The notes below the pieces were generated by a model that was not told the origin of the DNA, did no database searches, and saw nothing but the letters and a program-made list of their open reading frames with translations. DNA of 64,000 nucleotides from Crossiella cryophila (GTDB taxonomy: Bacteria; Actinomycetota; Actinomycetes; Mycobacteriales; Pseudonocardiaceae). Position 1 is the first letter of the stretch; every line of letters starts with the position of its first letter. The position numbers were made by a program, and so were the translations under genes. Location of the stretch: NCBI RefSeq assembly GCF_014204915.1, contig NZ_JACHMH010000001.1, positions 62,001 through 126,000 of the forward strand, read 5' to 3'. Of this stretch, positions 23,429 to 46,232 are shown piece after piece.

Positions 23429-23878
23429 ATGCCGGAGGCCCAGGACCAGCGCGTCCGCTGTGTCGGCGCAGTCGTCTTCGACCCGATCGGACGCATTCTG
23501 TTGATCCGTCGAGGCCAGCCCCCGGCGGCCGGTTCCTGGTCCATCCCGGGGGGCCGGGTGGAGCCGGGAGAAGATGATCACAGGGCTGTGATCAGGGAGT
23601 TGTCCGAGGAGACCGGCCTGACCGGGGCGATCGATCGCTGGATCGGTTCGGTGGAGCGGCCGTCACTGACCGGCGTCTATGTGATCCACGACTACTCCGT
23701 ACGGGCGAACGCCGGGCTTATCCGGGCTGGTGACGACGCTTCGGCGGTGGCCTGGATCGACGGTGTGATCTTCGACGCACTGCACAGCGCAGGGTCCCTT
23801 TCGCCCGGTTTGGCGGAGGCGCTCGCCGGGTGGGGAGCGCTCCCCGCCGGCGCCAGGGCCGGAACCACGCCCGACTAG
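23429..23878 (+). CDS. Nudix hydrolase
   Basis: A 149-residue Nudix protein. The Nudix box is complete: [18 protein letters not shown] followed by SEETGL, with the REUxEE core. An ADP-ribose, (d)NTP or other nucleoside-diphosphate-X substrate cannot be told from sequence. The ATG of MPEAQDQ is preferred over a GTG eleven codons earlier that lies in the promoter region. Its stop shares CTAG with the convergent DUF2332 gene. Confidence 0.92.
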
Positions 23879-24966
23879 TTCGGACCGAGCCAGGTGAGTC
23901 CTCGGGTCAACCGATCGGCGGTAGCCAGTCTGCGCACCCGGACCTTGCCGTCGGCCCAGTTGATCACGCTCAGCACCCGGTCGGCCTCGGCCAGGTGAGC
24001 CGCCCCGTCACGGAGTTCGGCCGGGAAGCCCTGGTAACTCTCCTGGCTGACCCACCACAGTGGACGGTGACTCGCGAGCGTGCGCAACGCGTCCACCCAG
24101 GCCGTCGCGAAGTCCCCGGAACGACCGTCGAGCAGCCCGCAACTGGTGACCACCAGAGGGTTTTCCGCCGGAATCCGGGCCGCGGCAGCCGCCAGTCCGG
24201 TGACCGGGTCGGTCCGCAGCAGCGGTGGCTTGGCCGCCATGACCTCGTCCGCGGCCAGCCGGAGCAGCCGCAGCCGCCGGGGCTGGTCGGGCCGGACACA
24301 GGCCTCCAGCCAGGTCAGCTCGTCCTCGTCGGCCACGTCCACCGGGTCCGCGTCCAGGCCGACCCGCTCGGCGATCGCGGGCAGCTTGGCCTGCTTGCCG
24401 AAGGCCTCGGCCGGTTTGCCCGCCTGGTCGATGACCTGGCAGTCCAGCACCAGCCGGGCCGTCTTCTTGCCGCGGCTGATGTCCGGTCCGCCGCCCTCGA
24501 CGGAGTAGCGGAAGCCGTAGCGGTCCAGGACCAGCCGGAACCCGGCCCCCGCCCCGGCCTCGACCAGGCCGATCGGGGTCTTGCCCGCCTCCTTGGCCAC
24601 CACGGCCAGGCCCGGGTAGAGCAGTGCGGCCGGGCGGACCAGCTCCTCCCGCACCGAGCGCTCGGCCAGCAGCGGCCGGATCGAGTCGGCGCGTTCGAGC
24701 ACGAAGGAGCGGAACAGCGGCCACAGCTCGCCGTCCGGACCATCGGCCCCGCCCAGCGCGGGGTAGTAGCGGGTCAGGGCGTGCCAGGGCTCGCGGAAGA
24801 GCACCCGCTGGGCCGCGGCCAGGAACAACTCGGGCGAGGCATCGCCAACCAGGGCGGTCACCCCGGCGTCCTCGGCCGCACCCGCGGCCAGGCATTCGTA
24901 CAGCGGGGAGGCGGCGGACTGCTCCGCCGCGAACTGGCGCAGCCGCTCGGCGGCCGGTGCGCTCAT
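23875..24966 (-). CDS. DUF2332 family protein (paralogue 1)
   Basis: A 363-residue soluble protein of the DUF2332 family. The segment [19 protein letters not shown] (about 125-145) looks like motif I of a Rossmann methyltransferase (E-x-G-x-x-x-G), and [12 protein letters not shown] may carry the following acidic residue. A second DUF2332 gene is at 44125-45210 with EIGASGGLNL in the same place. It lies 5 bases after the MaoC stop, so the two are probably one operon. No function is established for the family; methyltransferase activity is an inference. Confidence 0.85.
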
Positions 24967-24971
24967 CGGGC

Positions 24972-25475
24972 TCAGACCTTCGGCTCGGGGCGGCCGGGCT
25001 GCTCGCCACCGCGAGCCTCGCCGTAGCTGCGCTTGGGCACCATCACCTTGCGCCGGAACACGCACACCACGGTGCCGTCCTGCTTGTAACCCTTGGTCTC
25101 CACGTAGACCACTCCCCGGTCGTCCTTGGACCTGGACTCGGTCTTGTCCAGCACCTCGGTCTCGCCGTAGATGGTGTCACCGTGGAAGGTCGGCTTGATG
25201 TGCCGCAGCGACTCGACCTCCAGGTTGGCGATGGCCTTGCCGGAGACATCGGCCACCGACATGCCCAGCAGCAGCGAGTAGATGTAGTTGCCGACCACCA
25301 CGTTCTTGCCGAAGTCGGTGGTCTCCCCCGCGTAGTGGGCGTCCAGGTGCAGCGGGTGGTGGTTCATCGTGATCAGGCAGAACAGGTGGTCGTCGTACTC
25401 GGTGACCGTCTTTCCCGGCCAGTGCTTATAGACCGCGCCGACCTCGAACTCCTCGAAGTACCGCCCGAACTGCAC
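24972..25475 (-). CDS. MaoC-like dehydratase (hotdog fold)
   Basis: A 167-residue hotdog-fold protein. The N-terminal GRYFEEFEVGAVYKHWPGKTV and the hydratase-2 type motif LITMNHHPLHLDAHYA (Asn/His and Asp near 36-48) are typical of MaoC enzymes that hydrate enoyl-CoA. The GTG has GGGAGG 4 bases upstream. The frame continues far upstream (to 27617) only as a shadow of CorA and MMPL. It is likely to hydrate or dehydrate a CoA thioester in fatty-acid or dicarboxylate metabolism. Confidence 0.85.
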   Translation of the reverse strand: MQFGRYFEEFEVGAVYKHWPGKTVTEYDDHLFCLITMNHHPLHLDAHYAGETTDFGKNVVVGNYIYSLLLGMSVADVSGKAIANLEVESLRHIKPTFHGDTIYGETEVLDKTESRSKDDRGVVYVETKGYKQDGTVVCVFRRKVMVPKRSYGEARGGEQPGRPEPKV

Positions 25476-27383: not shown

Positions 27384-29459
27384 GTGTCCCGTCTTCGCCT
27401 TGTGCTGCCCGCGTTCGCCCTGCTCGCCTGGATCGTGATCGGCGCCGTCGGCCTGCCCGACCTGGGGAAGTTGTCCCAGGTCCAACGCAATGACAACGCC
27501 TCCTTCCTGCCCGCCAGTGCGGAGGCGACCAGGGCGGCGAACGAGCAGAAGCGCTTCACCGAGGCCGATGTGCTGCCCGCGGTGCTGGTCTTCGAACGCG
27601 ATTCCGGCCTGACGCAAGCGGATCAGGACGCGATCGCCCGGTCGGTACAGCGTGCGTCCACTGTGGACGGACTTAAGGGAACAGCCTCACCGGTGGTGCC
27701 CGCGCCGGATGGCAGGGCGGCGCAGGCGCTGCTGCCGGTGGACGGCAGTGACGGGTTCCGGGCCGGGGAGACGGTCAAGGCGTTGCGGGACAAGGTCCGC
27801 GAGGGCCTGCCCGGCGGGTTGAGCGCGCACGTGACCGGACCGGCCGGGATCGTCGGGGACTTCGCGGCCACCTTCGGCGGCATCGACGGGTTGCTGCTGG
27901 GGGTGACCGCGGCGGTGGTGGCGCTGATCCTGGTGCTGGTCTACCGGAGTCCGCTGCTGCCGGTGGTGGTGCTGGCCACGGCCGGACTGGCGTTGCTGGG
28001 CGCGGCCGCGGTGGTGTACCGGCTGGCCAGGGATGGGGTGCTCACGCTGAACGGGCAGAGCCAGGGCATCCTGTTCATCCTGGTCTTCGGCGCCTCCACC
28101 GACTACGCGCTGCTGCTGGTGGCGCGCTACCGGGAGGAGTTGCGGCAGGCCGGGCCGCGACTGGCCATGCGGCGGGCCTGGCGGGCCTCGCTGGAGCCGA
28201 TCTGCGCCTCGGCCGGGACCGTGGTGCTGGGCATGCTGTGCCTGCTGTTCAGCGATCTCAACTCGAACAAGGGCCTCGGCCCGGTGGCCGCGATCGGCAT
28301 CGTCGCCTCGCTGCTGGCCTCGCTGACCTTCCTGCCGCCCGCGCTGATGTTGTTGGGGCGTAGTGCGTTCTGGCCGCGGAAACCGGCGGCGGCCAAGGAC
28401 GGGATCTGGGGCCGGGTGGCGAACCTGGTGGGCCGCAGGCCGCGCTGGACCTGGGTGCTGACCACCGCGGTGCTGTTGTTCGGGGTGGCCTTCGTGCCGC
28501 AGCTCAAGGCGGACGGGGTGGCCCAGACCGACGTGTTCCTGTCCACAGTGGACTCGGTGTACGGGCAGCAGGCGCTGGGACGGCACTTCCCCGGCGGCAG
28601 CGGCTCGCCCGCGGTGATCGTGACCGCGGCGGACACGGTGGAACCGGTGCTGGTGGCCGCGCGTGGGGTGGCGGGCGTGGCCGAGGCGACGGCGTTGCCC
28701 AAGGTGGTGGACGGCCGGGTGGAGATCAACGCCACCCTGCGCTCGGCCGCGGACAGCGAGGCCGCGATCGAGGCGGTGCGCGCGTTGCGGACCGCGGTGC
28801 ACGCGGTGCCGGGGGCCTCGGCGGTGGTGGGCGGGCCGACCGCGGCCCAGCTGGACGTGCAGGACACCGCGTTGCGGGACCGGGCGCTGATCATCCCGTT
28901 GGTGGTGCTGGTGATCCTGGTGGTGCTGGCCCTGCTGCTGCGTTCGCTGCTGGCCCCGCTGCTGCTGATGCTGACCGTGGTGCTCAGCTTCGCGGCCACC
29001 CTGGGAGTCTCCGCGCTGGTGTTCAACCACGTCTTCGACTTCCCCGGCGCCGATCCCGGGGTTCCGTTGTACGCCTTCGTGTTCCTGGTCGCGCTGGGCA
29101 TCGACTACAACATCTTCCTGATGACCAGGGTGCGCGAGGAGGCCGCCCGCCGGGGCACCGAGGCCGGCACCCTGGTCGGGCTGTCGGTGACCGGCGGGGT
29201 GATCACCTCGGCCGGGGTGGTGCTGGCCGCGACCTTCGCCGCGCTGGCGGTGCTGCCGATCCTGTTCCTGGCCCAGATCGCCTTCCTGGTCGCCTTCGGC
29301 GTGCTGCTGGACACCCTGGTGGTGCGTTCGCTGCTGGTGCCCGCGCTCGCGGTGGACCTGGGCCGGGCGATCTGGTGGCCCAGCAGGCTTTCCCGCCCTC
29401 GACCGGTGTCGGTGCTCAATGACGCCGCAGCAGCACGGCGAGCGGCGCGCTCAGGATGA
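27384..29459 (+). CDS. MMPL family transporter, 691 aa
   Basis: An RND-superfamily MMPL transporter made of two repeats: TM1, an extracytoplasmic domain (about 30-165), TM2-6 (VTAAVVALILVLVYRSPLLP, FGASTDYALLLVARYREEL), and again a domain (about 370-490) and TM8-12 with LVALGIDYNIFLMTRVREEA. The paired Asp-Tyr motifs (STDYALLLV and GIDYNIFLM) are the proton-relay positions of the family. MMPL proteins export lipids or polyketides, and this one is close to the FAAL/PKS locus. The GTG start has GGGGG upstream. Its 3' end overlaps the convergent MFS gene by 44 bases. Confidence 0.92.
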   Translation: MSRLRLVLPAFALLAWIVIGAVGLPDLGKLSQVQRNDNASFLPASAEATRAANEQKRFTEADVLPAVLVFERDSGLTQADQDAIARSVQRASTVDGLKGTASPVVPAPDGRAAQALLPVDGSDGFRAGETVKALRDKVREGLPGGLSAHVTGPAGIVGDFAATFGGIDGLLLGVTAAVVALILVLVYRSPLLPVVVLATAGLALLGAAAVVYRLARDGVLTLNGQSQGILFILVFGASTDYALLLVARYREELRQAGPRLAMRRAWRASLEPICASAGTVVLGMLCLLFSDLNSNKGLGPVAAIGIVASLLASLTFLPPALMLLGRSAFWPRKPAAAKDGIWGRVANLVGRRPRWTWVLTTAVLLFGVAFVPQLKADGVAQTDVFLSTVDSVYGQQALGRHFPGGSGSPAVIVTAADTVEPVLVAARGVAGVAEATALPKVVDGRVEINATLRSAADSEAAIEAVRALRTAVHAVPGASAVVGGPTAAQLDVQDTALRDRALIIPLVVLVILVVLALLLRSLLAPLLLMLTVVLSFAATLGVSALVFNHVFDFPGADPGVPLYAFVFLVALGIDYNIFLMTRVREEAARRGTEAGTLVGLSVTGGVITSAGVVLAATFAALAVLPILFLAQIAFLVAFGVLLDTLVVRSLLVPALAVDLGRAIWWPSRLSRPRPVSVLNDAAAARRAARSG

Positions 29460-30600: not shown

Positions 30601-30635
30601 GTATTTGTCCTTCGGCATGAATGGAGGCTGGTGGC

Positions 30636-31478
30636 ATGCCCAGTGAACGCTGGCGTGACGAACGAGTGGTCGACATCCAGGTGAAATCTTCCGCACTCCG
30701 GCGGGAGACGGAACTCACCCTGCTCGTTCCCAAGCAGTGGCGAAAGAGCACGCATAGCTGGCCGACGCTGTACCTGCTGCACGGCGCGGGCGATGACCAT
30801 ACCTGCTGGCTGCACTGGACAGATATCCTTCGGTTGGCCGACGAGGCGGAGATCCTGGTGGTGATGCCACCGGGCGGCCGGGTCGGACTCTACAGCGACT
30901 GGATCGCACCGGATCGGATGGGAACGATCCCACACTGGGATGAATTCGTTTTCAGCGAACTGCCCGCACTTCTGGAAAAGCATTACCGGGCCAATGAGGT
31001 GCGCGCCGGGGCCGGGGTGTCGATGGGTGGTTACGGCGTGCTGCGCGGCGCTCAGCGGCATCCCGGCTTCTTCCGCGCGGTGGCCTCCTACAGCGGGCTG
31101 CTGCACACCACCCGCCGCGGCATGCCGGCCTTCGCCCGCGCGATGCTCCGTCGCGAGGGGGAAAAGACCAGCTCACTGTGGTCCTCGCGGGCGAACTGGC
31201 TGGCCGAGGACCCCTACCGCAACGCCGAGGCGCTGCGCGGCACCCCGCTCCACCTGAGTACCGGGGACGGCCGGCGGGGTCCGCTGGACCGGCGATTCTC
31301 CGGCGGCTCGGTACTGGAATGGATCATCGGACCCGGCACCCTCGACCTGGCCGCGCGCCTCACCGAGCTGGGCATTCCGGCCACCGTGCACGCCTACGCC
31401 GGAACCCACACCTGGCCCTATTGGCGACGGGAACTGAACACCTCCTTCCCATTTCTGCTGGCGGCACTACGAAAGTAG
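30636..31478 (+). CDS. Esterase D/antigen 85-type alpha/beta hydrolase
   Basis: A 280-residue alpha/beta hydrolase: LYLLHGAGDDHTCWLHWTD (oxyanion loop), the nucleophile GVSMGGYG (Ser near 128) and C-terminal GTHTWPYWRREL with the catalytic His. The GxSMxG plus THxWxxW ending is shared by esterase D, S-formylglutathione hydrolases and the antigen 85 mycolyltransferases. There is no signal peptide here, so a surface mycolyltransferase role is unlikely. The ATG at 30636 has GGAGG 8 bases upstream. It stands directly before the FAAL/PKS genes in the same direction, so it may process the PKS product. Confidence 0.85.
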   Translation: MPSERWRDERVVDIQVKSSALRRETELTLLVPKQWRKSTHSWPTLYLLHGAGDDHTCWLHWTDILRLADEAEILVVMPPGGRVGLYSDWIAPDRMGTIPHWDEFVFSELPALLEKHYRANEVRAGAGVSMGGYGVLRGAQRHPGFFRAVASYSGLLHTTRRGMPAFARAMLRREGEKTSSLWSSRANWLAEDPYRNAEALRGTPLHLSTGDGRRGPLDRRFSGGSVLEWIIGPGTLDLAARLTELGIPATVHAYAGTHTWPYWRRELNTSFPFLLAALRK

Positions 31479-31613
31479 GTTCTGCCGCGTGCGAGGGTTC
31501 ACATACCCAAGCATCTTGCCTTCCACGGGATCCGTTCGACAATGGATTCACACCGGCCATTCGACGACGCGCGGCCAGTACTCCTGCCTCCCTTCCTGAA
31601 AAGGGTGACCCCG

Positions 31614-33368
31614 ATGACCCCCATCGAATTCGCCGTGCCCGAACAGCACGACTTCACCGGGTCGATGCCGCTCACCGGATTTCTGCACCGGAACGCCGAC
31701 AGTGACCGTCCGGCATTCACCTTCGTCGACTACAGCGTGGACCGGGCCGGGATCGAGCACACCCTGACCTGGCGGGAACTCGACGTGCTGGCCAGGGCGC
31801 TGGCCGCGCAGCTCCGCCAGGCCACCGCGCCCGGCGCCAGGGTGGCCATCCTGACCCCGCACGACCTCAACTACGTGGTGGCCTTCCTCGGCTGCCTGTA
31901 CGCGGGCGTGATCGGGGTGCCGCTGTTCGCGCCCGAGGTGAGCCTGCACGGCTCCCGGCTGGTCGGCGCGCTGGCCGACTGCGATCCCGAGGTGTGGCTG
32001 GCCACCGAGCACGCGCTGCCACAGGTGCGCAAGCTGCTGGACGGCGAGCTGGCGCCCAGCCCCAAGCAGGTGCTCGCGGTGGACAAGGTGGATCCGCTGG
32101 CCGCGGTGGGCTTCCGCCCGGCGGTGGTGTCGATGGACGATCCGGCCTACCTGCAGTACACCTCCGGCTCCACCCGCGCGCCAAGCGGCGCGGTGATCAC
32201 GCACCGGAACCTGGTGGTCAACTCGGCCCAGATCGCCGCCGCGTACGGCATGGACCAGAGCTTCACCTGCTCCGGCTGGATCCCGTTCTTCCACGACATG
32301 GGCCTGATGTCGATGCTGGCGGTGCCGGTGCTGCTGGGCGCGCGCGGGGTGTTCTGCACGCCGTTCGCCTTCCTGCAGCGGCCGGAACGCTGGCTGCGCC
32401 AGCTCGCCGCGCACCCGAACACGCTGACCGCCGCACCCAACTTCGCCTTCGACTACGCGTCCGCGCGCACCAGCGAGGAGTTCAGGTCCACTGTGGACCT
32501 GTCTCGGGTCAAGATCATGATCAACGGCAGTGAACCGGTGCGGGCCAAGACGATCGAGCGGTTCAACGCCGCCTTCGGGCAGGCCGGGCTGCGGCCCGAG
32601 GCGCACCGGCCGTCCTACGGGCTGGCCGAGGCGACCGTGTACGTGACCGCCACCGGACCGGCCGGACCGACCGTGCTGCACGTGGACCGGACCGACCTCA
32701 GCGCCGGAAGACTCACACCGTCCACTTCGGACACCGCGCTGGCACTGGTCGGCGCGGGCAGCGGGATCGGATTGCAGGTGCTGGTGGTGGATCCGGCCAC
32801 CGGCGCGGCCCGGCCCGAGGGCACGGTGGGCGAGGTGTGGGTGCACGGGCCGAACGTGGCCGACGGGTACTGGCAGAAGCCCGAGGAGTCCGCCGAGGAC
32901 TTCGACGGCCATCTGACCAGCGGCCCGGATTCGGCCCCACAGCGCGGCTGGCTGCGCACCGGGGACCTGGGCGCCTTCCACGAGGGCGAGCTGTTCATCA
33001 CCGGGCGGGCCAAGGACCTGATCATCATCGACGGCAAGAACCACTACCCGCAGGACATCGAGGGCACCGTGCACGAGGCGCACCCGGCCATCCGGCGGGA
33101 CTACGTGGCCGCGTTCGCCTTGTCGGACAATGACTCCGAGCAGGTGGTGGTGATCGCGGAGTACTCGCGGCACGCCTCGGCGGAGGATCGCGATCCCGAC
33201 CTGGTCGGGCTGGCCGTGCGCCAGGCGGTCGCGGCCCACCACGACCTGCGGCTGGCCGATTTCCGGCTGGTGCCGCCGGGCAAGGTGCGCCGCACCTCCA
33301 GCGGCAAGATCGCCCGCAACGCCACCCGTGAGCAGTACCTCGGCGGGGTTTACGGGGAGCGGCCATGA
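31614..33368 (+). CDS. Fatty acyl-AMP ligase (FAAL, FadD32-like)
   Basis: A 584-residue adenylate-forming enzyme of the FAAL subgroup. The P-loop QYTSGSTRAPSGAVITH is at about 181-197; GWIPFFHDMGLM and YGLAEATVYV are the A4/A5 motifs; LRTGDLGAFHEGELFITG, RAKDLIIIDGKNHYPQDIE and the C-terminal Lys in SGKIARNATRE complete the core. FAALs activate free fatty acids as acyl-AMP and pass them to an acyl carrier domain, not to CoA. The ATG has AAAAGGG 8 bases upstream. Its stop overlaps the PKS start (ATGA), so its acceptor is almost certainly the N-terminal ACP of that PKS. Confidence 0.93.
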   Translation: MTPIEFAVPEQHDFTGSMPLTGFLHRNADSDRPAFTFVDYSVDRAGIEHTLTWRELDVLARALAAQLRQATAPGARVAILTPHDLNYVVAFLGCLYAGVIGVPLFAPEVSLHGSRLVGALADCDPEVWLATEHALPQVRKLLDGELAPSPKQVLAVDKVDPLAAVGFRPAVVSMDDPAYLQYTSGSTRAPSGAVITHRNLVVNSAQIAAAYGMDQSFTCSGWIPFFHDMGLMSMLAVPVLLGARGVFCTPFAFLQRPERWLRQLAAHPNTLTAAPNFAFDYASARTSEEFRSTVDLSRVKIMINGSEPVRAKTIERFNAAFGQAGLRPEAHRPSYGLAEATVYVTATGPAGPTVLHVDRTDLSAGRLTPSTSDTALALVGAGSGIGLQVLVVDPATGAARPEGTVGEVWVHGPNVADGYWQKPEESAEDFDGHLTSGPDSAPQRGWLRTGDLGAFHEGELFITGRAKDLIIIDGKNHYPQDIEGTVHEAHPAIRRDYVAAFALSDNDSEQVVVIAEYSRHASAEDRDPDLVGLAVRQAVAAHHDLRLADFRLVPPGKVRRTSSGKIARNATREQYLGGVYGERP

Positions 33369-36300
33369 GCCCCGTGCGCACCGAGCAGCAGCTGCGGGAC
33401 TGGCTGCTGCGCCGGGTCGCGGAGGCCACCGGCCGCGCGCCAGGTGAGATCGACGTGCACCAGCCGCTGGACAGCTACGGGCTGTCCTCCCGGGACGCGG
33501 TCGCGCTGTCCGGGCAGCTCGAAGAACACCTCGACCGCAGTCTTCCGGCGACGCTGGTCTGGGAGTACCCGACGATCGCCGGAATCAGCGCGGCCCTGCT
33601 CGGTGTGGCCGCGCCGAAGGCCGCTGACGCCGCCCCGCCCGCGGCGTCAGCGGCCCCACCCAGCGCCGAACCGATCGCGGTGGTCGGGCTCGGCTGCCGC
33701 CTGCCCGGCGGGGTGCACGGCCCGAAAGCCTTCTGGGACCTGCTTTCCGGCGGCCGGGAGGCCATTTCCGAGGTGCCGGAACAACGCTGGGCCGGGCACG
33801 CCGGTTCGCCGGAGGCGGCCGAGGTGCTGGCCCGCACCACCCGCTGGGGCGGCTACCTCAACGACATCACCGGTTTCGACGCCGACTTCTTCGGCATCAG
33901 CCCGCGCGAGGCCGCCGGGATGGACCCGCAGCAACGCCTGCTGCTGGAGGTGAGCTGGGAGGCCCTGGAACACGCGGGCATCGCGCCGGCCGGGCTGCGC
34001 GGCAGCCGGACCGGGGTGTTCGTCGGGATCAGCGGCAACGAGTACGGGCAGCTGGCGATCAGCGAGGCCGAGCGGATCGACGCCTGGAGCGGCACCGGCG
34101 CGGCGCTGAGCATCGCGGCCAACCGGCTCTCCTACGTGCTGGACCTGCGCGGACCCAGTGTCGCGGTGGACAGCGCCTGCTCATCCTCGCTGGTCGCGGT
34201 GCACCTGGCCATGCAGAGCCTGCGTGCGGGTGAGAGCGCGGTGGCGCTGGCCGGGGGCGTGAACCTGTTGCTGTCACCGGGAGTCACGGTCAACTTCGAC
34301 CAGATGGGCGTGACCTCGCCGGATGGCCGGTGCCGGGCCTTCGACGCGGCGGCCAACGGCATGGTGCGGGCCGAGGGCGCGGGCGTGGTGGTGCTCAAGC
34401 GACTCGCCGACGCCCGGCGGGACGGGGACCGGGTGCTCGCGGTGCTGCGCGGCTCCGCGGTCAACTCCGACGGCCGGTCCAACGGCATCACCGCGCCCAA
34501 TCCCGAGGCGCAGGAAGCCCTGTTGCGCACCGCCTATGCCAACGCTGGCATCGAACCGTCCGAAGTGGACTATGTGGAGGCGCACGGCACGGGTACGTTG
34601 CTCGGAGACCCGATCGAGGCAGGCGCCCTGGGTGCGGTGCTCGGCACGGGCCGGGATCCGGAGGCGCCGCTGCTGATCGGGTCGGTGAAGACCAACGTTG
34701 GCCACCTGGAGGCCGCGGCAGGCATCACCGGGCTGATCAAGGTGGTGCTCGCGCTGGCCAACGACGCCATCCCGGCCAGCCTGCACTTCACCGAGCCCAA
34801 CCCGCACATCCCGTTCGACCGGCTGGGCCTGGCGGTGGCCAGTGTTTCCCGGCCGTGGCCGCGTCAGGACCGCCCTGCCCGCGCCGGAGTCTCCGGCTTC
34901 GGTTTCGGCGGCACCAACGCGCATGTGATCGTCGAGGAGGTAGCCGCGACTGCCTCCGCTTCGACGGCGGAGGGGCCGGACGGCTACCTGTTGTCCGGCC
35001 CCTCTCCAGAACGCATCCGGGACACCGCGGGCAGCCTGGCCGAATGGCTGGTCACCGCGGAGGCCGATCTCGGCGCGGTGCGGCACGCGCTGCACCGCCG
35101 GTTCGCCGGACCCAGCCGGGCCCTGATCACCGCAGCGGACAAGGCAGAACTGCTTGCCGGACTGCGCACACTGGCTGCGGGCCGGGTCGCGCCGAACATC
35201 GCCGCCGGCCGCGGGGACCGGCTGGGCGCTGGCGTGGTGTGGGTGTTCTCCGGGCACGGCTCGCAGTGGGCGGGCATGGGCGCGGAACTCCTCGCCACCG
35301 AACCGGCCTTCGCCGACGCACTGTCCGAAGTGGACGAAATGGTGCAGGCCCTTGCCGGGTTCTCACCGAAGCGACTGCTGCTGGACCGGGCCGAGCTGGA
35401 CGGGTTCGCCGTGGTGCAGCCGACCTTGTTCGCGGTGCAGGTGGCCCTGGCCGAACTGTGGCGCTCCTACGGTGTGCGGCCGGACGCGGTGATCGGGCAT
35501 TCGGTGGGCGAGGTGGCGGCCGCCGTGGTGAGCGGCGCGTTGTCGCTGGCCGACGGGGTGCACGTGGTGACAGCCCGGTCCCGGCTGGCCGCTGCACTTG
35601 CCGAACCCGGGGTGATGGCGGTGCTGGAGCTGCGGGCCGAGGAGGTGGCCGCGGCAGCCGAAGGACTGTCCGATGTGGACATCGCGGTGCACAACGCGCC
35701 GGAGCAGACCGTGGTGGCCGGACCCTCGGATTCGGTGGCGCGGCTGGTCGAGCGAGTGGAGGCGGGTGGGCGGATGGCCCGGCTGGTCCGGGTGGACGTG
35801 GCCAGCCACTCCGCCAGGGTCGAACCGGTGCTGCCCGCACTGGCCGCCGAACTGCGTGGGTTGCGCGGCCGCAAACCGGAGATCCCCTTCTACAGCACGG
35901 TGTCCGAGCAGCCCGCCTTCGACGCCGGGTACTGGGTGGCCAACCTGCGCCGGCCGGTGCGCTTCGCCGACGCGGTGACCGCGGCGCTGGCCGACGGGTT
36001 CGGGGCGTTCCTGGAGATCGCGCCGCATCCGGTGCTGGCCCAGGCGATCACCGAGACCGCGCGGGCACACGAGTCCGAGCCGGTGGTGCTGGCCAGTCTG
36101 CGCCGGGACGAACCCGAGCGCGCGCAGCTGCGGCATGAGCTGGGCCGGTTGCGTCTGGCCGGACATCCGTTGCCGCGCACCAAGGGCGCGCTGGCCGAGC
36201 TGCCCACCACGCCCTGGCGGCACCAGCCGTACTGGGTGGCGCCGAGCCGCCGCCGCGGCGTGCTGCCCGCCGGGCACCCGTTCCTGGGCACCCACCTGGA

Positions 36301-39300
36301 GCTGCCCGAGGACGGTCGGCACCTGTGGTCGGCCGAGATCGGCCTGGACGCGTTGCCCTGGCTGACCGATCACCGGGTGGACGACGTGCCGGTGCTGCCC
36401 GGCGTGGCCTACGCGGAGATCGCGCTGTCCGCGGCGAGTGCCGCCTTCGGCCTGCCGGTCAGCCAGGTGCAGGCCAGTGACGTGGCCCTGCACCGGCCGC
36501 TCGTCCTGGGCGCGCGCACCGGACTGACCACCGTGCTCATCCCCGGCGGCGACCTGCGTGGCCTGGTGAACATCTACAGCCGGGCCGAGGACGACGCCTG
36601 GCTGCTGCACGCCACCGCCAAGGTCGCCGCCGCCGAGCCAGTGTCCACTGTGGACATAGATCCCTTCGACGGCTCGGATGTGCTTGCCGGGGAAGGCATC
36701 GAGCGGGCCGAGCTGTACCGGCGGCTGCGGGCGCTTGGCCAGCAGCACGGACCGGCCTTCGCCGGGGTCACCGAGGTGCACGCCACCGGCGACGGCACCG
36801 CGGCGGCCAGTGTGGTGCTGCCCGAACAGGCCCCGCCCAACCCGCGCTTCGCCGCACACCCCGCGGTGCTGGACTCCTGCCTGCAGGTGCTCGGCGCGGC
36901 CCTGCCCCCGGCCGCGGACAACGAGCTGCACCTGCCGATGGAGTTCGGCGCGATCCGGGTCTACGGCGAGGTCGGGCAGGGCGGGCTGTGCCAGGTCACG
37001 GTCTCCGGCGAGGACGGCGGCGTGCTGGCCGACGTGCGGCTCAGCGATCCGGACGGCAGGCTGGTGCTGGAGATCAACGGCGTGTTCGTGCGCCGGGTGC
37101 AGCGCACCGAACTGACCGTTCCGCTGGGTGAGCTGCTGCTGGAAACGGTGTGGCAGCGCGCTGATCCGCCGCCCGGACCGGTCGCGGAGACCAGCGGGAC
37201 CTGGCTGGTGATCGGCGAGGACGACCGGCTCACCTGCGACCTGACCGACGGCCTGCTCGCCGCCGGACGGCACCCGATCCTGCTGTCCACTGTGGACCTC
37301 ACCCCCGAGCTGCTGACCAGCGTGCTCGACCAGACCACACCGGCCGGGATCGTCTTGGTGCAGCCGGAACCGGACGGCCCCGAGGGCCTGGACGCGGCAC
37401 TGCGGCTGACCGTGGCCGCCTCCACCCTGGTCGGCGCGCTTGCCGACCGCGGGCTCACGCCCAGGTTGTGGCTGCTCGGCGTGGGTGGCGCGGATGTGGT
37501 GGGCGCGGAGCTGGTGCGCCCGGCCGCGGCCGCGTTGCGTGGGCTGGCCAGGGTGCTGACCTTCGAGCAACCAGCGCTGCGGGCGAGCTGGGTCGACGTC
37601 GATGACACCGCCGCGGTGACCGGGTTGCTGGCCGAACTGCTCGGCGGCGGCACCGAGGACGAGGTGGCCTGGCGCGGCGGGATCCGTTACGCGGCAAGGC
37701 TGCGCCGGGCCGTGCTGCCCGAACCGGGCGAGGCCCCGGTGGTGCGCTCCGGCGGCGCGTACGTGGTCACCGGCGGACTCGGCGGGCTGGGCCTGGTGCT
37801 GGCCCGCTGGCTGGTCGACCGCGGCGCGGGCAAGGTGGTGCTCAACGGCCGGTCCAACCCGAACTCGGCCGCCCAGCAGGTGATCGCCGAACTGCGGGCA
37901 GGCGGCGCGCTGGTCGAGGTGGTCGCCGGGGACATCGCCGATCCCGGGGTGGCGGAACGGATCGTGGCCACCGCCCAGGACGGCGCGAGCCTGCGCGGAG
38001 TGGTGCACGCGGCCGCGGTGCTCGACGACCGGGTGCTGGGCAGGCTGGACGCGGACAACGTGCGCCGGGTGTGGCGCCCCAAGGCTTATGGCGCCTGGCG
38101 GTTGCACGAGGCCACCGCCGGACTGCCACTGGACTGGTGGCTCGGCTTCTCCTCCGCGGCCGCCCTGCTCGGCTCCCCCGGCCAGGCCGCCTACGCCGCC
38201 GCGAACGCCTACCTGGACGCGATCACCGCCCGCCGCCGCGGCGAGGGCCAGCTCGCGGCCACCATCAACTGGGGCACCTGGGCCGAGGTCGGCCTGGCCG
38301 CGGACCGCGAGGTCGGCGCGGTCGCCCCCATCACCCCGGACCAGGGCCTGGCCGCGCTGGAGGCGGTGCTCGCCTCGGGCCGGGCGGCCACCGGCGTGCT
38401 GCGCCTGGACGTCCGGGCGCTGGCGGAGCTGTTCCCGGCCGCGGCCGAGTCACCGTTCTTCGCCGAACTCGTCCCGGCCGCACCCGCGGTCACCCCGGAC
38501 TGGCCCGGCGTCGACGCACTGTCCACAGTGGACCAAGCTGAGGCCCGCCGGATCGCCGGTGGCCAGTTGCGGGCCCGGATCGCCGGGCTGATGGGCTTCG
38601 CCGCCGAGGCATTGCCCGCCGACACCGCGCTGACCGGGCTGGGTCTGGATTCCCTGCTCGCGGTGCGGGTGAAGAACGCGGTGCAGCACGACTTCGGCCT
38701 GACCCTGGCCACCGCGGTGCTGTTGCGCGGGGCCAGCGTCGCCGAGCTGGAGAGCTGGCTGTTCACCGAACTCACCCTGGGCGCGCGGGAGTCCGGCCCG
38801 GCCAAACCGGTGCTGGTGCCGCCGAGGGACGCGGCCGAGCGGCTGGTCAGCGCGGTGTGGCAGGAGGTGCTGGTGCGGCCGGTCGGCGTCACCGAGACTT
38901 TCGAGGCCGCCGGCGGCACGCCGGTGCAGGCCGAGCGGATCGCCGCACTGCTGGCCGAGCGCAGTGGTCGCACGCTGCGGGTGGACGAGCTGTTCGGGGT
39001 GCCGACGGTGGAGGGCATGGCGCGCTGGGTGCGGGAGCGGGAGGTCGGCAGCGGGCAGTCCCCGCTGCGGGTGCTGCGCCGCGACGGCGGTCAGCCACCG
39101 CTGTTCTTCTTCCACCCGGCTGGCGGGGACACCGCGGTGTACCGGCAGCTGGTCGACCTGCTCGACGCCGATCAACCGGCGTATGGCCTGGACCGGGTCG
39201 ACCACGTGCGCGAACTGACGGAGAAGGCCGGGTGCTATCTGGATCACGTCCGGGCGGTTGCCCCGCACGGTCCGTATCGGTTGGCCGGGTGGTCGCTGGG

Positions 39301-39895
39301 TGGGTTCCTCGCGTACGAGGTCGCGCAACAACTCACGGCGGCCGGTGCCGAGGTGGAACTGGTGGCGATGATCGACTCGCTGAACCCGCTGCCGTTGCCA
39401 GCCGGCCTGGACGAGGTGCGGCTGGCCGAGCTTCGTTTCCGACGGTTCGCCGATTTCCTGGAGGCCAGTTATGGCAGGCGGATCGAGCTGCCGTACGACG
39501 TGCTGGCCAGGTTGGGCGATGAGGAGCAGATCGATCTGCTGATCGAGCAGATGACCACGCACGAGCTGGTCAACGTCGAGGTCAGCACGGCGATCCTGCA
39601 TCACCAGCGGACTTCGTTCCTGGATACCCGGGTGCTGGAGCGGTATCAGCCCGAGCTGTATGACGGGCGGGTGGTGCTGTACAGCGCAGCGGAGAAGACG
39701 CCTGGTGGGCTGAAGGATCCGCGGTTCGACCGGGATGACGCGCCGCTGGGGTGGGATGAGTTCTGCCCGGGGTTGGAGGTGGTCCGGGTGCCGGGCCACC
39801 ACCTGTCGGTGCTGGACCCGCCCAACGTCGAGACCATCGGCGCGCACCTCCGCGACCTACTCCGCTCCCTCGCCCCCACCCCGAACCACCCCTGA
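33365..39895 (+). CDS. Type I polyketide synthase ACP-KS-AT-DH-KR-ACP-(ACP-like)-TE, Pks13-like with a reducing module
   Basis: This 2176-residue enzyme receives an acyl chain from the coupled FAAL and extends it. Domain order: ACP (about 5-85, S42 in GLSSRDA); KS (about 98-520, C272 in DSACSSS, with EAHGTG and NVGHLE); AT (about 615-920, S713 in GHSVGE, specificity motif VASH 812-815, as in methylmalonyl-using Mas-type ATs); DH (about 980-1235, H1003 and D1170 in LDSCLQ); KR (about 1460-1650, GGLGGLG at 1470, LDD 1553-1555 indicating B-type, Y1610, N1614); ACP (S1763 in GLDSLL); a carrier-like domain with GGTP where GGxS is expected (1850-1853); TE (about 1915-2170, S1977 in GWSLGG, H2145/H2146). 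No ER is seen, so an unsaturated or polyene product would be expected if DH and KR act each cycle. Confidence 0.93.
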   Translation: MSPVRTEQQLRDWLLRRVAEATGRAPGEIDVHQPLDSYGLSSRDAVALSGQLEEHLDRSLPATLVWEYPTIAGISAALLGVAAPKAADAAPPAASAAPPSAEPIAVVGLGCRLPGGVHGPKAFWDLLSGGREAISEVPEQRWAGHAGSPEAAEVLARTTRWGGYLNDITGFDADFFGISPREAAGMDPQQRLLLEVSWEALEHAGIAPAGLRGSRTGVFVGISGNEYGQLAISEAERIDAWSGTGAALSIAANRLSYVLDLRGPSVAVDSACSSSLVAVHLAMQSLRAGESAVALAGGVNLLLSPGVTVNFDQMGVTSPDGRCRAFDAAANGMVRAEGAGVVVLKRLADARRDGDRVLAVLRGSAVNSDGRSNGITAPNPEAQEALLRTAYANAGIEPSEVDYVEAHGTGTLLGDPIEAGALGAVLGTGRDPEAPLLIGSVKTNVGHLEAAAGITGLIKVVLALANDAIPASLHFTEPNPHIPFDRLGLAVASVSRPWPRQDRPARAGVSGFGFGGTNAHVIVEEVAATASASTAEGPDGYLLSGPSPERIRDTAGSLAEWLVTAEADLGAVRHALHRRFAGPSRALITAADKAELLAGLRTLAAGRVAPNIAAGRGDRLGAGVVWVFSGHGSQWAGMGAELLATEPAFADALSEVDEMVQALAGFSPKRLLLDRAELDGFAVVQPTLFAVQVALAELWRSYGVRPDAVIGHSVGEVAAAVVSGALSLADGVHVVTARSRLAAALAEPGVMAVLELRAEEVAAAAEGLSDVDIAVHNAPEQTVVAGPSDSVARLVERVEAGGRMARLVRVDVASHSARVEPVLPALAAELRGLRGRKPEIPFYSTVSEQPAFDAGYWVANLRRPVRFADAVTAALADGFGAFLEIAPHPVLAQAITETARAHESEPVVLASLRRDEPERAQLRHELGRLRLAGHPLPRTKGALAELPTTPWRHQPYWVAPSRRRGVLPAGHPFLGTHLELPEDGRHLWSAEIGLDALPWLTDHRVDDVPVLPGVAYAEIALSAASAAFGLPVSQVQASDVALHRPLVLGARTGLTTVLIPGGDLRGLVNIYSRAEDDAWLLHATAKVAAAEPVSTVDIDPFDGSDVLAGEGIERAELYRRLRALGQQHGPAFAGVTEVHATGDGTAAASVVLPEQAPPNPRFAAHPAVLDSCLQVLGAALPPAADNELHLPMEFGAIRVYGEVGQGGLCQVTVSGEDGGVLADVRLSDPDGRLVLEINGVFVRRVQRTELTVPLGELLLETVWQRADPPPGPVAETSGTWLVIGEDDRLTCDLTDGLLAAGRHPILLSTVDLTPELLTSVLDQTTPAGIVLVQPEPDGPEGLDAALRLTVAASTLVGALADRGLTPRLWLLGVGGADVVGAELVRPAAAALRGLARVLTFEQPALRASWVDVDDTAAVTGLLAELLGGGTEDEVAWRGGIRYAARLRRAVLPEPGEAPVVRSGGAYVVTGGLGGLGLVLARWLVDRGAGKVVLNGRSNPNSAAQQVIAELRAGGALVEVVAGDIADPGVAERIVATAQDGASLRGVVHAAAVLDDRVLGRLDADNVRRVWRPKAYGAWRLHEATAGLPLDWWLGFSSAAALLGSPGQAAYAAANAYLDAITARRRGEGQLAATINWGTWAEVGLAADREVGAVAPITPDQGLAALEAVLASGRAATGVLRLDVRALAELFPAAAESPFFAELVPAAPAVTPDWPGVDALSTVDQAEARRIAGGQLRARIAGLMGFAAEALPADTALTGLGLDSLLAVRVKNAVQHDFGLTLATAVLLRGASVAELESWLFTELTLGARESGPAKPVLVPPRDAAERLVSAVWQEVLVRPVGVTETFEAAGGTPVQAERIAALLAERSGRTLRVDELFGVPTVEGMARWVREREVGSGQSPLRVLRRDGGQPPLFFFHPAGGDTAVYRQLVDLLDADQPAYGLDRVDHVRELTEKAGCYLDHVRAVAPHGPYRLAGWSLGGFLAYEVAQQLTAAGAEVELVAMIDSLNPLPLPAGLDEVRLAELRFRRFADFLEASYGRRIELPYDVLARLGDEEQIDLLIEQMTTHELVNVEVSTAILHHQRTSFLDTRVLERYQPELYDGRVVLYSAAEKTPGGLKDPRFDRDDAPLGWDEFCPGLEVVRVPGHHLSVLDPPNVETIGAHLRDLLRSLAPTPNHP

Positions 39896-44124: not shown

Positions 44125-45210
44125 TCAGCTCCAGCGTTGCTCGTCCCATGTGAACGGGATCCCATGTCCGGACCCGCTGCCGAGGTGGAGCGAAATTCCG
44201 GCAGGCCACAACCGCAGCAACAGGTCGAACCGGAACAATCCGCCCACCCGTTCCCGGGGTTCATAGACCAGCAGCGCGAGCGGACTCTCCGGCGTGGCCT
44301 GCGCGGCCGCCTCGGCCAGCACGGTCCGGCCCTGCGCACGCTGCGCGGGCGAGACGTACTGCCACACCACCGAATGCCAGACCACGGTGAGCACGCCCGG
44401 CCGCGGCTGGGCCAGGTGCCGCCGCAGCCAGTCCGGTCCGGCGGCGCGTTCCACCTTCACCGGATCGTCCACGGCCAGCCGCATCGCGCGCTGCAACCGG
44501 CGCCAGCGATCGAGCTGGTCCGGCCAGACGAAGGAGGAGAGCTGCCGCTGGCCATCCAAAGTGGACACATCCACCGGCTTGAGGTCACAACCGGCGCGCT
44601 CGACGAGTTCCAGCGGTGCGTCCAGGTCGGTGGGCGGCAGGCCGGTCCACTCCGGGTCGAGCTGCAACCGGCTGCGCTTGTCCCCGAGCACCCGGCCGTC
44701 GGAGAGCCGGTAGCCGACCCGGTGCGGGCGCAGGTTGAGCCCGCCGCTCGCGCCGATCTCCAGCAACCGCACCGGATACGGCTCGGTGCGCCCGGCGGCC
44801 TGGGCCGCCCGGCCCGCGGCCACCAGCAGCCCGCCGTAGAGCGGGGCGGTGCGGCCGGGCTCATTGGTCTGCACGACCGTGGAGCGCACCAGGCCGCGCA
44901 GTTCGTCGGCGTACTCGGCCAGCACCGGTTCGACGTCCGCCCAGAGATTGCCCAGATCGGTGGCACCACCGACGCTGGGGTAATGCTTTGCCAGGCCGGG
45001 GGCCTTGCCCTCCAGCACCAGCCGATGCAGTGAGCCTGCGAATCGCAGACCGGGCACAGTTCCGCGCCGGTCCCGCTCGGATCCGGCCATCACCGACGCC
45101 GTGACGCCACCGGCGGCCAGATCTTCGGCAGCGGCGGTCAGCAAGGCGTGGTTGAGCGGACTCCGCTGGCGGCAACCACGGGCGGCATCCTGGAAAAGCT
45201 CCACGAGCAC
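44125..45210 (-). CDS. DUF2332 family protein (paralogue 2)
   Basis: A 361-residue soluble protein of the same family as the gene at 23875, with the shared order of conserved segments: FxGSLHRLVLEGKAPGLAKHYPS, PLYGGLLVAAGRAA, LLEIGASGGLNLRPHRVGY (Rossmann-like Gly loop) and VVWHSVVWQYV. The last resembles a fold-level catalytic or acceptor strand. The GTG giving VLVELFQDA is taken as start since upstream codons lie in a terminator-like hairpin. Sequence divergence from paralogue 1 is large, so different substrates are likely. Function unknown. Confidence 0.85.
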   Translation of the reverse strand: MLVELFQDAARGCRQRSPLNHALLTAAAEDLAAGGVTASVMAGSERDRRGTVPGLRFAGSLHRLVLEGKAPGLAKHYPSVGGATDLGNLWADVEPVLAEYADELRGLVRSTVVQTNEPGRTAPLYGGLLVAAGRAAQAAGRTEPYPVRLLEIGASGGLNLRPHRVGYRLSDGRVLGDKRSRLQLDPEWTGLPPTDLDAPLELVERAGCDLKPVDVSTLDGQRQLSSFVWPDQLDRWRRLQRAMRLAVDDPVKVERAAGPDWLRRHLAQPRPGVLTVVWHSVVWQYVSPAQRAQGRTVLAEAAAQATPESPLALLVYEPRERVGGLFRFDLLLRLWPAGISLHLGSGSGHGIPFTWDEQRWS

Positions 45211-45225
45211 AGAGGCGAGGCTAGT

Positions 45226-45290
45226 CCCCCGGCGCGCTGATCGGCAGTCCCCCCAAGGGTTTTCACCCTGCTGCCCAGCGACGCCGGGGG
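45226..45290 (-). terminator. Terminator-like hairpin after the propeller gene
   Basis: CCCCCGGCG (45226-45234) pairs with CGCCGGGGG (45282-45290), enclosing a second small hairpin AGGGT-TTTC-ACCCT (45256-45269). It begins 13 bases after the stop of the propeller gene on the minus strand. Confidence 0.6.
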
Positions 45291-45302
45291 TGCCATTGAT
45301 CA

Positions 45303-46232
45303 CTACCGAATGTCGACCGCGACCGCGTTGTAGGGCGTGGTCGGCGTCGGCGGAGTGGTGAACCGGGCGTTCGGCAGGTACAGCCGGTGACCGAACTGGG
45401 CGACGGTGGCCGGCACGTCGAAGCGCGGGTCGGTGATCGAACGGGTCAGCTTGCCGCTGCCGCCGTCCGCGGCGAGCTTGAACTCGGTGACCACGTTGAG
45501 CCGGTTCTGCACCACGTAGAGCGTGCGGCCGTCACGCAGCAGGCCGTCGCCGTTGGTCAGCAGCGCGCCGCCCAGGTCCACCGTCCTGGCCACACCGGTG
45601 CGCGGGTCCACCCGGAACAGCTTGCCGGTGTTGGACTGCACCACCAGCAGCGCGTCCCCGGCGGGCGTGGTGACCAGGCCGTTGGCGTTGACCCCCTCGC
45701 CGACCTGGGCGAAGTCCCCGGTCAGCGGGATCTTGGTGAACTTGTCCGCTGCGGGCAGCGCACCGTCGCGACCCAGCGGCAGCCGGTACAGCGCCGGGTT
45801 GCGCGAGTCGGTGAAGTAGGCCGCGCCCGGGGTCAGCACCACGTCGTTGATGAAGCTCTTGCCGGCCTCGGCGAAGGCGTAACTGGCAAGGACCTTGCCG
45901 GTCCGGGTGTCCACCACCCGCGCGTCCCCGCCGGTGCCGCCGGAGACGAACAGCCGTCCGCGCCAGTCGGTCTTGAGGCCAAGCGAGGGCGTGCCGGGCC
46001 CCTTGCTGAACACCGTGCCCTTGCCGCTGGCCAGGTCGACCTTGTAGATCGAACCGTCCACTCTGGACCCGAAGTAGGCGCTGGCCCCGCCGATGGCCAC
46101 GCCCTCCGGCTGGAACCCGTTCGGTAGCGCGAACTCGGTCGGGAATGGCGCCGTCCCGGCCACCGCGACCGGCGCCCCGGCCAGCGCGGTCACCACCACC
46201 GCGGTCCCCGCCAACAGTCTCCGAACGCGCAT
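45303..46232 (-). CDS. Secreted SMP-30/NHL-type beta-propeller protein
   Basis: A 309-residue protein with a clear Sec signal peptide (MRVRRLLAGTAVVVTALAGA, cut probably after AVA near 25). The mature part is a six-bladed propeller with repeats such as FQPEGVAIGGASAYFGSRVDG (by position 42-62), VVDTRTGKVLASY, FINDVVLTPGAAYFTDS, GVNANGLVTTPAG and LFRVDPRTG. It resembles SMP-30/gluconolactonase-like or quinoprotein-like proteins, but metal ligands cannot be assigned safely. GAGAGGA precedes the ATG. Probably extracellular; ligand or substrate unknown. Confidence 0.85.
   Translation of the reverse strand: MRVRRLLAGTAVVVTALAGAPVAVAGTAPFPTEFALPNGFQPEGVAIGGASAYFGSRVDGSIYKVDLASGKGTVFSKGPGTPSLGLKTDWRGRLFVSGGTGGDARVVDTRTGKVLASYAFAEAGKSFINDVVLTPGAAYFTDSRNPALYRLPLGRDGALPAADKFTKIPLTGDFAQVGEGVNANGLVTTPAGDALLVVQSNTGKLFRVDPRTGVARTVDLGGALLTNGDGLLRDGRTLYVVQNRLNVVTEFKLAADGGSGKLTRSITDPRFDVPATVAQFGHRLYLPNARFTTPPTPTTPYNAVAVDIR

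What the first reader, a model, noticed from the sequence alone, without database searches (positions are those of the whole stretch)
30636..39895. FAAL-PKS locus resembling FadD32-Pks13 but with a reducing DH-KR module
Seen: an esterase, a FAAL and a 2176-aa PKS in one direction, the last two with a 4-base overlap. The PKS starts with an ACP, like Pks13 (ACP-KS-AT-ACP-TE), yet adds DH and KR domains with intact catalytic residues and no ER. Known: FadD32/Pks13 condense two long acyl chains into mycolic acids. Inference: this system would extend an activated fatty acid by one or more units, giving an unsaturated, possibly 2-methyl-branched acid, released by TE. I know of no described product for this architecture.
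Basis: partly seen in the sequence, partly recalled or inferred. Interest (0 to 1): 0.78.

Follow-up and report, generated by a model that had tools for sequence, protein, structure and literature searches.

The report
Mycobacterial-style lipid synthesis locus in Crossiella
A soil bacterium (Crossiella) and some of its relatives carry a conserved gene set, not found described so far, that looks built to make, release and export a branched, unsaturated fatty acid with parts related to those tuberculosis-type bacteria use for their waxy coat.

The parts
27384..29459 (+). MMPL-family (RND) exporter, 691 aa; conserved first gene of the cassette
   Evidence: Pfam MMPL 9.6e-115; NCBIfam TIGR00833 below its cut-off; nearest solved MmpL5/MmpL4 1.6e-56, MmpL3 2.4e-23; present in 14 of 17 named loci L043-L059
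29416..30696 (-). MFS efflux-type transporter, divergent, conserved between MMPL and est/FAAL (true start probably inside this ORF, since it overlaps est)
   Evidence: Pfam MFS_1 9e-58; synteny
30636..31478 (+). Alpha/beta-hydrolase of the PF00756 mycolyltransferase-like family, Ser/Glu/His triad, no signal peptide; probable acyltransferase or hydrolase (longest ORF starts at 30621)
   Evidence: PDB phmmer: PS1 2.5e-36, Cmt1 1.5e-26, Ag85A 2.5e-19; triad and N-terminal check; start choice, with an in-frame stop just before 30621
31542..33368 (+). Fatty acyl-AMP ligase (FAAL), 608 aa
   Evidence: NCBIfam FAAL models up to 563 bits, each below its cut-off; nearest solved: 5d6j 'acyl-CoA synthase' and FadD32
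33365..39895 (+). Type I PKS, 2176 aa: ACP-KS-AT-DH-KR-ACP-pseudoACP-TE
33380..33628 (+). N-terminal ACP (GLSSRD, Ser42), presumed FAAL acceptor
33662..34954 (+). KS (Cys272 and both His motifs intact)
35042..36250 (+). AT with linker; GHSVGE ... VDVASHS; nearest solved = Mas
36251..37150 (+). DH, double hotdog, His1003 and Asp1170; nearest solved = PpsC/Mas-like DH
37727..38479 (+). KR, K/S/Y/N intact, LDD motif; nearest solved = Mas KR
38537..38788 (+). C-terminal ACP (Ser1763)
38807..39049 (+). Serine-less carrier-like domain (VPPRDAAER... GGTPVQ), also matched in mycobacterial Pks13
39062..39880 (+). Thioesterase of Pks13 type (Ser1977)
   Evidence: Pks13 TE 3e-46, next other kind 4e-23

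Best explanation
A self-contained lipid synthesis and export cassette (MMPL - MFS - mycolyltransferase-family hydrolase - FAAL - PKS) made of enzymes related to those mycobacteria use for envelope lipids. Shown by sequence: gene set, domain order, intact catalytic residues, conserved synteny. Inferred steps: (1) FAAL adenylates a free medium- or long-chain fatty acid and loads it on the N-terminal ACP. (2) KS condenses it once with an alpha-substituted malonyl unit, most likely methylmalonyl, loaded by the AT on the C-terminal ACP. (3) KR makes the beta-hydroxyl and DH removes water; with no ER, the product is a 2-methyl-2-enoic acid, formally like the head of mycolipenic acid (recalled). (4) The Pks13-type TE releases it or passes it to an alcohol acceptor. 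(5) The cytosolic PF00756 enzyme transfers or hydrolyses the ester. (6) MMPL exports the lipid.
Against: No chemistry. AT motif differs across the family (VAGH 13, VAAH 8, VASH 5, YASH 1, AAAH 1 of 28), and one paper reads VASH as ethylmalonyl (PMC10646177, passages); the genome has two crotonyl-CoA carboxylase/reductases over cut-off, so ethylmalonyl-CoA may be on hand. By bit score the AT is not nearer the mycobacterial loci fetched (219, over 275 residues) or Pks13 (229) than the own modular ATs (250). KS has no clear preference among solved chains (CurL 509, Pks13 506 bits). DH is weakened in some kin, so dehydration may not be essential. The hydrolase lacks a signal peptide, unlike Ag85. 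No acceptor-making gene or AccD was seen in the Crossiella cassette. MMPL is nearest siderophore exporters MmpL5/4 and is not an MmpL3 orthologue by score. The PDB is rich in mycobacterial lipid enzymes, which biases nearest-structure naming.
Confidence: 0.5

Rival explanations
1. Mycolate-like product: the AT takes a long alkylmalonyl (2-carboxyacyl-CoA) extender, as Pks13 does (recalled), and the DH is slow or silent, so the product is an alpha-branched beta-hydroxy (or alpha-alkyl-enoic) acid: a mycolate made with a built-in ketoreductase.
For: Pks13-type TE and serine-less ACP. Kin loci L041, L042 and L102 carry an AccD-type carboxyltransferase gene beside FAAL-PKS or one gene away; those of L041 and L042 group with AccD4 in the tree (SH-aLRT 94, not starred). 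The catalytic DH His is lost in L041 and L102 (their Asp remains), and L056, L189 and L190 give no DH hit, while all five keep the KR residues. AT motifs VAGH/VAAH in 21 of 28 may suit bulkier side chains (inference).
Against: No AccD hit in any of the 14 full named loci. The window AT matches Mas better than Pks13 (284 against 220 bits). Window DH residues are intact. The closest own-genome carboxyltransferase groups with rows I read as AccD5/PccB-like, not with AccD4.
Confidence: 0.17
2. Iterative PKS: the single module runs several rounds and makes a poly-methylated or polyene acid.
For: Mas, the nearest solved relative of AT and KR, is iterative (recalled); TE-terminated single modules can iterate (recalled).
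Against: No ER; FAAL priming with a preformed chain and a Pks13-type release favour one round (inference); Pks13 acts once (recalled).
Confidence: 0.15
3. Ordinary orphan type I PKS cluster for a secreted small molecule; MMPL and MFS are drug efflux pumps (compare ActII-3), the hydrolase a tailoring or resistance esterase.
For: MMPL's top NCBIfam model TIGR00833 is named actII and the top MFS hits are drug-efflux families, all below cut-off; MMPL nearest siderophore exporters; patchy distribution, 24 of 297 family genomes by FAAL at E<=1e-170.
Against: None of the seven window flanking genes tested is conserved with the set outside Crossiella (genes peculiar to other loci were not surveyed). 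The nearest solved relatives of hydrolase, AT, DH, KR and TE are lipid-pathway enzymes; KS is a tie with CurL, MFS was not searched in the PDB.
Confidence: 0.18

Closest known systems
FadD32-Pks13-AccD4 with Ag85 (mycolic acid condensation, Mycobacteriaceae)
   Same: FAAL directly followed by an N-ACP PKS ending ACP - serine-less ACP - Pks13-type TE; PF00756 hydrolase gene nearby
   Different: DH and KR inserted; AT nearer Mas among solved chains; no AccD seen; hydrolase not secreted in Crossiella; scores below the curated Pks13 (1402 of 2100) and FadD32 (536 of 975) cut-offs; MMPL not MmpL3-like
Mas / Pks2 / Pks3-4 type methyl-branched lipid synthases with FAAL and MmpL (SL-1, PAT/DAT, PDIM loci; organisation recalled)
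   Same: FAAL + PKS + MmpL + acyl-transfer enzyme; AT and KR nearest Mas among solved chains; predicted 2-methyl, alpha,beta-unsaturated head as in mycolipenic acid (recalled)
   Different: No ER; carries its own N-terminal ACP and a TE; no Pap acyltransferase among the neighbours scanned; Pks2 model score 1248 of cut-off 2400
PpsA-PpsC (phthiocerol synthesis, FAAL FadD26; recalled)
   Same: FAAL-primed N-ACP-KS (recalled for PpsA); KS 63% identical to a PpsA-sized PKS (1881-aa frame) of Mycobacterium kyogaense; DH nearest PpsC
   Different: Pps is a multi-protein assembly line without this TE (recalled); here one module with TE

Membership tests
Pks13 (NF040607) | Whole-protein score over curated cut-off 2100 | tested here: not met
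   1401.9 bits
Pks13 (NF040607) | ACP-KS-AT-ACP-TE without reducing domains | tested here: not met
   DH and KR present
Pks13 (NF040607) | Pks13-type TE | tested here: met
   3e-46 to Pks13 TE chains over 266 residues; next kind of chain 4e-23
Pks13 (NF040607) | AccD4 gene in the array | tested here: not met
   No AccD hit in any of the 14 full named cassettes; none among the window neighbours scanned. Present beside or near distant kin L041, L042, L102
Pks13 (NF040607) | Condenses two long acyl chains (2-carboxyacyl-CoA extender) | not testable with these tools
   AT nearer Mas than Pks13, no assay
FadD32 (NF038339) | Score over cut-off 975 | tested here: not met
   535.6 bits
FAAL (general) | AMP-binding plus DIP2-like C-terminal domain, best hits fatty acid-AMP ligases | tested here: met
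   Pfam PF00501 and PF23024 over cut-off; top six NCBIfam hits all FAAL, though each below its own cut-off; solved hits include FadD32, FadD23, FadD28
Mas / Pks2 iterative synthases | KS-AT-DH-ER-KR-ACP including ER | tested here: not met
   No ER hit in Pfam; Pks2 model 1248 of 2400
Ag85/PS1 mycolyltransferases | PF00756 family with Ser-Glu-His triad | tested here: met
   alignment; triad in the window and all other aligned rows except two second copies whose alignment is cut (L045b lacks Glu and His, L048b lacks His)
Ag85/PS1 mycolyltransferases | Secreted (signal peptide) | tested here: not met
   In-frame stop just before the window ORF and closed frames in the four congeners L031-L034. 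Hydrophobicity count only, no signal-peptide program. Undecided in L035/L055 and L054, whose upstream open frame holds a hydrophobic stretch; L040, L042, L102 and the mycobacterial rows have one
MmpL3 | Score over NF052608 cut-off 1400 | tested here: not met
   74.4 bits
Active PKS dehydratase | Double-hotdog fold with catalytic His and Asp | tested here: met
   activity itself not tested

The most novel reading that the evidence does not exclude
Scattered actinomycetes outside the mycolate producers carry a complete mycobacterial-style envelope-lipid module that makes, releases and exports an unsaturated alpha-branched (in kin with a dead DH, beta-hydroxy and mycolate-like) acid; and Pks13, the mycolic acid condensase, descends from such a reducing FAAL-PKS that lost DH and KR, its ketoreduction moving to a separate enzyme.
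Probability: 0.25. Interest if true: 0.82.

Novelty: new variant of a known kind. Interest (0 to 1): 0.62.

Why it matters
Pks13 and FadD32 are tuberculosis drug targets (recalled), and how the mycolate condensation machinery arose is, as far as I know, unsettled. A conserved relative with its own KR and DH, in bacteria that are not pathogens, plus kin whose DH has lost its His and which sit near an AccD-type gene, gives concrete sequences for testing how the condensase arose. It also predicts an exported lipid in Crossiella, Amycolatopsis, Kibdelosporangium, Longimycelium and others that my searches did not find reported, checkable by lipidomics of a single PKS deletion.

Tried and rejected
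Is the genome a mycolate producer with a true Pks13? The Pks13 model gives no single Pks13 over cut-off: one 5670-aa modular PKS frame passes only with its neighbours in the frame summed, and the window PKS is the best single stretch, below cut-off. Rejected.

AccD in L042 as proof of a mycolate-type extender: rejected as proof; it is 65% identical to an own-genome protein and, in each of two Mycolicibacterium/Mycobacterium genomes, 57-58% to one paralogue and 52-53% to another, the latter being the AccD4 next to Pks13 (identical rows). L041 and L042 nevertheless join AccD4 in the tree at 94; L102 does not.

Pks13 as sister of L041/L042/L102: not shown and not rejected (p-AU 0.337, long branches). 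The direction of DH/KR loss or gain is therefore open. KS tree with Mycolicibacterium PKSs: cassette + Pks13 + kin on one side at 88 only.

VASH read as ethylmalonyl (PMC10646177, passages): weighed against Mas carrying the same stretch; left open. Third PP-binding stretch as a working tandem ACP: rejected for the window; the serine is missing from the expected place in all aligned rows, though L042 and L050 have a serine one residue off.

Rows dropped before counts: L043, L044 and L055 (repeats of L031, L032, L035) from the 28-PKS census; L031, L032 and L055 from the trees (L043 and L044 were never in that alignment); 13 of 29 modular rows thinned; one search used 19 of the 28 core PKSs, 7 of 13 Pks13 and 5 modular rows plus L039.

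Literature: ten searches found no description of the locus; open-access PMC only. Searches returned nothing; for the others I saw listings, plus passages of PMC10646177, PMC6164871, PMC5168871, PMC9415966 and PMC8460268. The Crossiella cluster paper PMC9415966 does not use the term 'fatty acyl'. The PpsC dehydratase paper that I asked for by DOI is not held. The plasmid search with the FAAL gave 132 records, all under 60% identity. No MIBiG or antiSMASH database was available. A Foldseek list and a model of the hydrolase could not be obtained, so its fold rests on sequence.
Full report
What is there. The window is stretch 62001-126000 of a 10.06 Mb single-contig genome. Two of its four congeners carry contigs identical in length to contigs of Crossiella sp. 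S99.2 and SN42, so the organism is a Crossiella (Pseudonocardiaceae). The three ORFs of the finding are real: hydrolase 30621/30636-31478, FAAL 31542-33368, PKS 33365-39895, the last two sharing ATGA. The PKS reads ACP - KS - AT - DH - KR - ACP - ACP-like - TE, no ER. The third carrier-like domain lacks the serine at the expected place in the window and in the other aligned rows; L042 and L050 have a serine one residue off.

The unit is larger than the finding. Upstream are an MMPL gene (27384-29459) and a divergent MFS gene. I compared twelve window genes with related loci. Exceptions: L051 and L053 lie at contig ends; L056 (Conexibacter MAG) lacks MMPL and a DH hit. Of the other 63 loci, 45 show a FAAL without a PKS hit, 17 are FadD32-Pks13-type arrays of mycobacteria or unnamed actinomycete MAGs (some cut) and one is L102. 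Of 12 regions first fetched from related genomes, 7 (L031-L037) have the full set. The seven flanking genes tested (CorA, a short hypothetical, two DUF2332, ABC, permease, SGL) match only in Crossiella; elsewhere just the five cassette genes do. Named carriers of the full set: Crossiella, Amycolatopsis, Actinosynnema, Kibdelosporangium, Longimycelium and a Pseudonocardiaceae MAG. In L037, L046, L047, L049, L050 and L059 the hydrolase lies downstream of the PKS instead.

A second set was chosen by FAAL similarity alone: 24 of 297 family genomes at E <= 1e-170; the 19 matches not already fetched were taken. Fourteen of 19 have FAAL beside a DH/KR PKS (L188 cut by its contig end); 11 of those 14 have MMPL and MFS, 10 also the hydrolase; L189 and L190 have a PKS with KR but no DH hit; L191-L193 have a FAAL alone.

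Identity of the parts. Nearest solved chains, by sequence: hydrolase PS1 2.5e-36, Cmt1 1.5e-26, Ag85A 2.5e-19; FAAL 5d6j 'acyl-CoA synthase' 2.5e-136 and FadD32 5e-129; MMPL MmpL5/MmpL4 1.6e-56, MmpL3 2.4e-23; AT Mas 2e-83, with the same VDVASHS stretch; DH PpsC 4e-39, sharing HxxxDxxxxP and QQHGPAF; KR Mas 4e-58; TE Pks13 3e-46, next other kind 4e-23. For the KS, CurL (509 bits) and Pks13 (506) tie as single stretches, and 7zma leads only as a summed score. Against genome loci the KS is 63% identical to a PpsA-sized PKS, 58% to the own modular PKSs and 57% to Pks13; the PpsA label is my inference from cluster and size. The AT scores 250 bits against own modular ATs, 229 against Pks13 and 219 (275 residues) against the mycobacterial loci. 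The PDB holds many mycobacterial lipid enzymes, so these names are leads. The KR is 49% identical to a mycobacterial KR and 38% to own modular ones; the DH reaches 32% in own modular PKSs; the short mycobacterial loci fetched gave no DH hit.

Kinship with Pks13. The serine-less domain before the TE starts VPPRDAAER in the window and VPPR(D/E)A(A/S)ER in the three mycobacterial Pks13 tested (E 3e-7, 4e-6, 1e-4 to L111, L110, L119). I did not search the literature for it. Trees (quick, SH-aLRT): KS, 68 rows, cassette + Pks13 + kin apart from modular rows at 97*; AT, 62 rows, 98*; joined ACP-KS-AT/ACP-TE, 39 rows, 100*, with core rows plus L056/L189/L190 at 98*. With 20 Mycolicibacterium KSs added and 13 modular rows thinned (75 rows) the grouping stands at 88, unstarred. 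Mas itself was in none of the trees by name. The branching order of Pks13, the core and L040/L041/L042/L102 is unresolved (p-AU 0.337 for Pks13 + L041/L042/L102). The genome itself has no Pks13 over the curated cut-off apart from a summed modular artefact. That Pseudonocardiaceae lack mycolates is recalled; a passage says so for Actinoalloteichus hymeniacidonis only (PMC5168871).

Mechanism. FAAL charges the first ACP; KS condenses once; KR reduces; DH dehydrates; TE releases or transfers; MMPL exports. The extender is the weakest step. No core AT has the malonyl motif HAFH (0 of 28). The window's VASH is called ethylmalonyl in one paper, yet Mas, a methylmalonyl enzyme (recalled), has the same stretch. 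Both units look available: a carboxyltransferase that I read as PccB-like and two CCRs over cut-off. Other family members (VAGH, VAAH) may use other units. The cytosolic hydrolase is unexpected for an Ag85 relative: frames are closed upstream in the window and in L031-L034, while L040, L042 and L102 have hydrophobic N-termini and L035/L055 and L054 are undecided. I read it as an acyltransferase or editing enzyme acting before export.

Known or new. It fails FadD32 and Pks13 curated cut-offs and has extra domains, so it is not filed as either. Its parts are known kinds; the combination of Pks13-type priming and release with a PpsC/Mas-type reducing pair, in a cassette with MMPL, was not found in my ten searches. 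Hence a new variant of a known kind.

Noticed in passing
L041:3742-14570 (G036): FAAL - PKS (KR intact, DH catalytic His lost, Asp kept) - AccD-type carboxyltransferase - phosphopantetheinyl transferase inside a purine-gene neighbourhood: a built-in-KR, mycolate-like synthase candidate.
   Followed up: partly
L042:4340-16181 (G012) and L102 (Actinacidiphila guanduensis): FAAL - PKS(KR) arrays with an AccD gene and a PF00756 hydrolase with a hydrophobic N-terminus, outside the named Mycobacteriaceae loci.
   Followed up: partly
L040:3699-11907 (G019): A Pks13-shaped ACP-KS-AT-ACP-TE PKS without DH/KR beside a FAAL and a PF00756 hydrolase with a signal-peptide-like N-terminus, in the window's family, which is not known for mycolates (recalled).
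   Followed up: no
L045 and L047: Amycolatopsis anabasis carries two diverged copies of the cassette, with the hydrolase upstream of the FAAL in one and downstream of the PKS in the other.
   Followed up: no
L039:1-13934 (G014): FAAL with a two-protein reducing PKS; its first KS and its AT fall with the cassette/Pks13 group, its second KS elsewhere.
   Followed up: partly
G002:C1:2616288-2617970 and G004:C36:20003-21685: A second FAAL-like frame in two congeners, each read by the search with one in-frame TGA.
   Followed up: no
window 23875-25065 and 44125-45303: Two DUF2332 genes on either side of the cassette, found in Crossiella but not with the cassette elsewhere.
   Followed up: no
L191-L193 and 45 of the loci L060-L122: Many FAALs about 47-53% identical to the window's stand without a PKS hit nearby; function not examined.
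   Followed up: no
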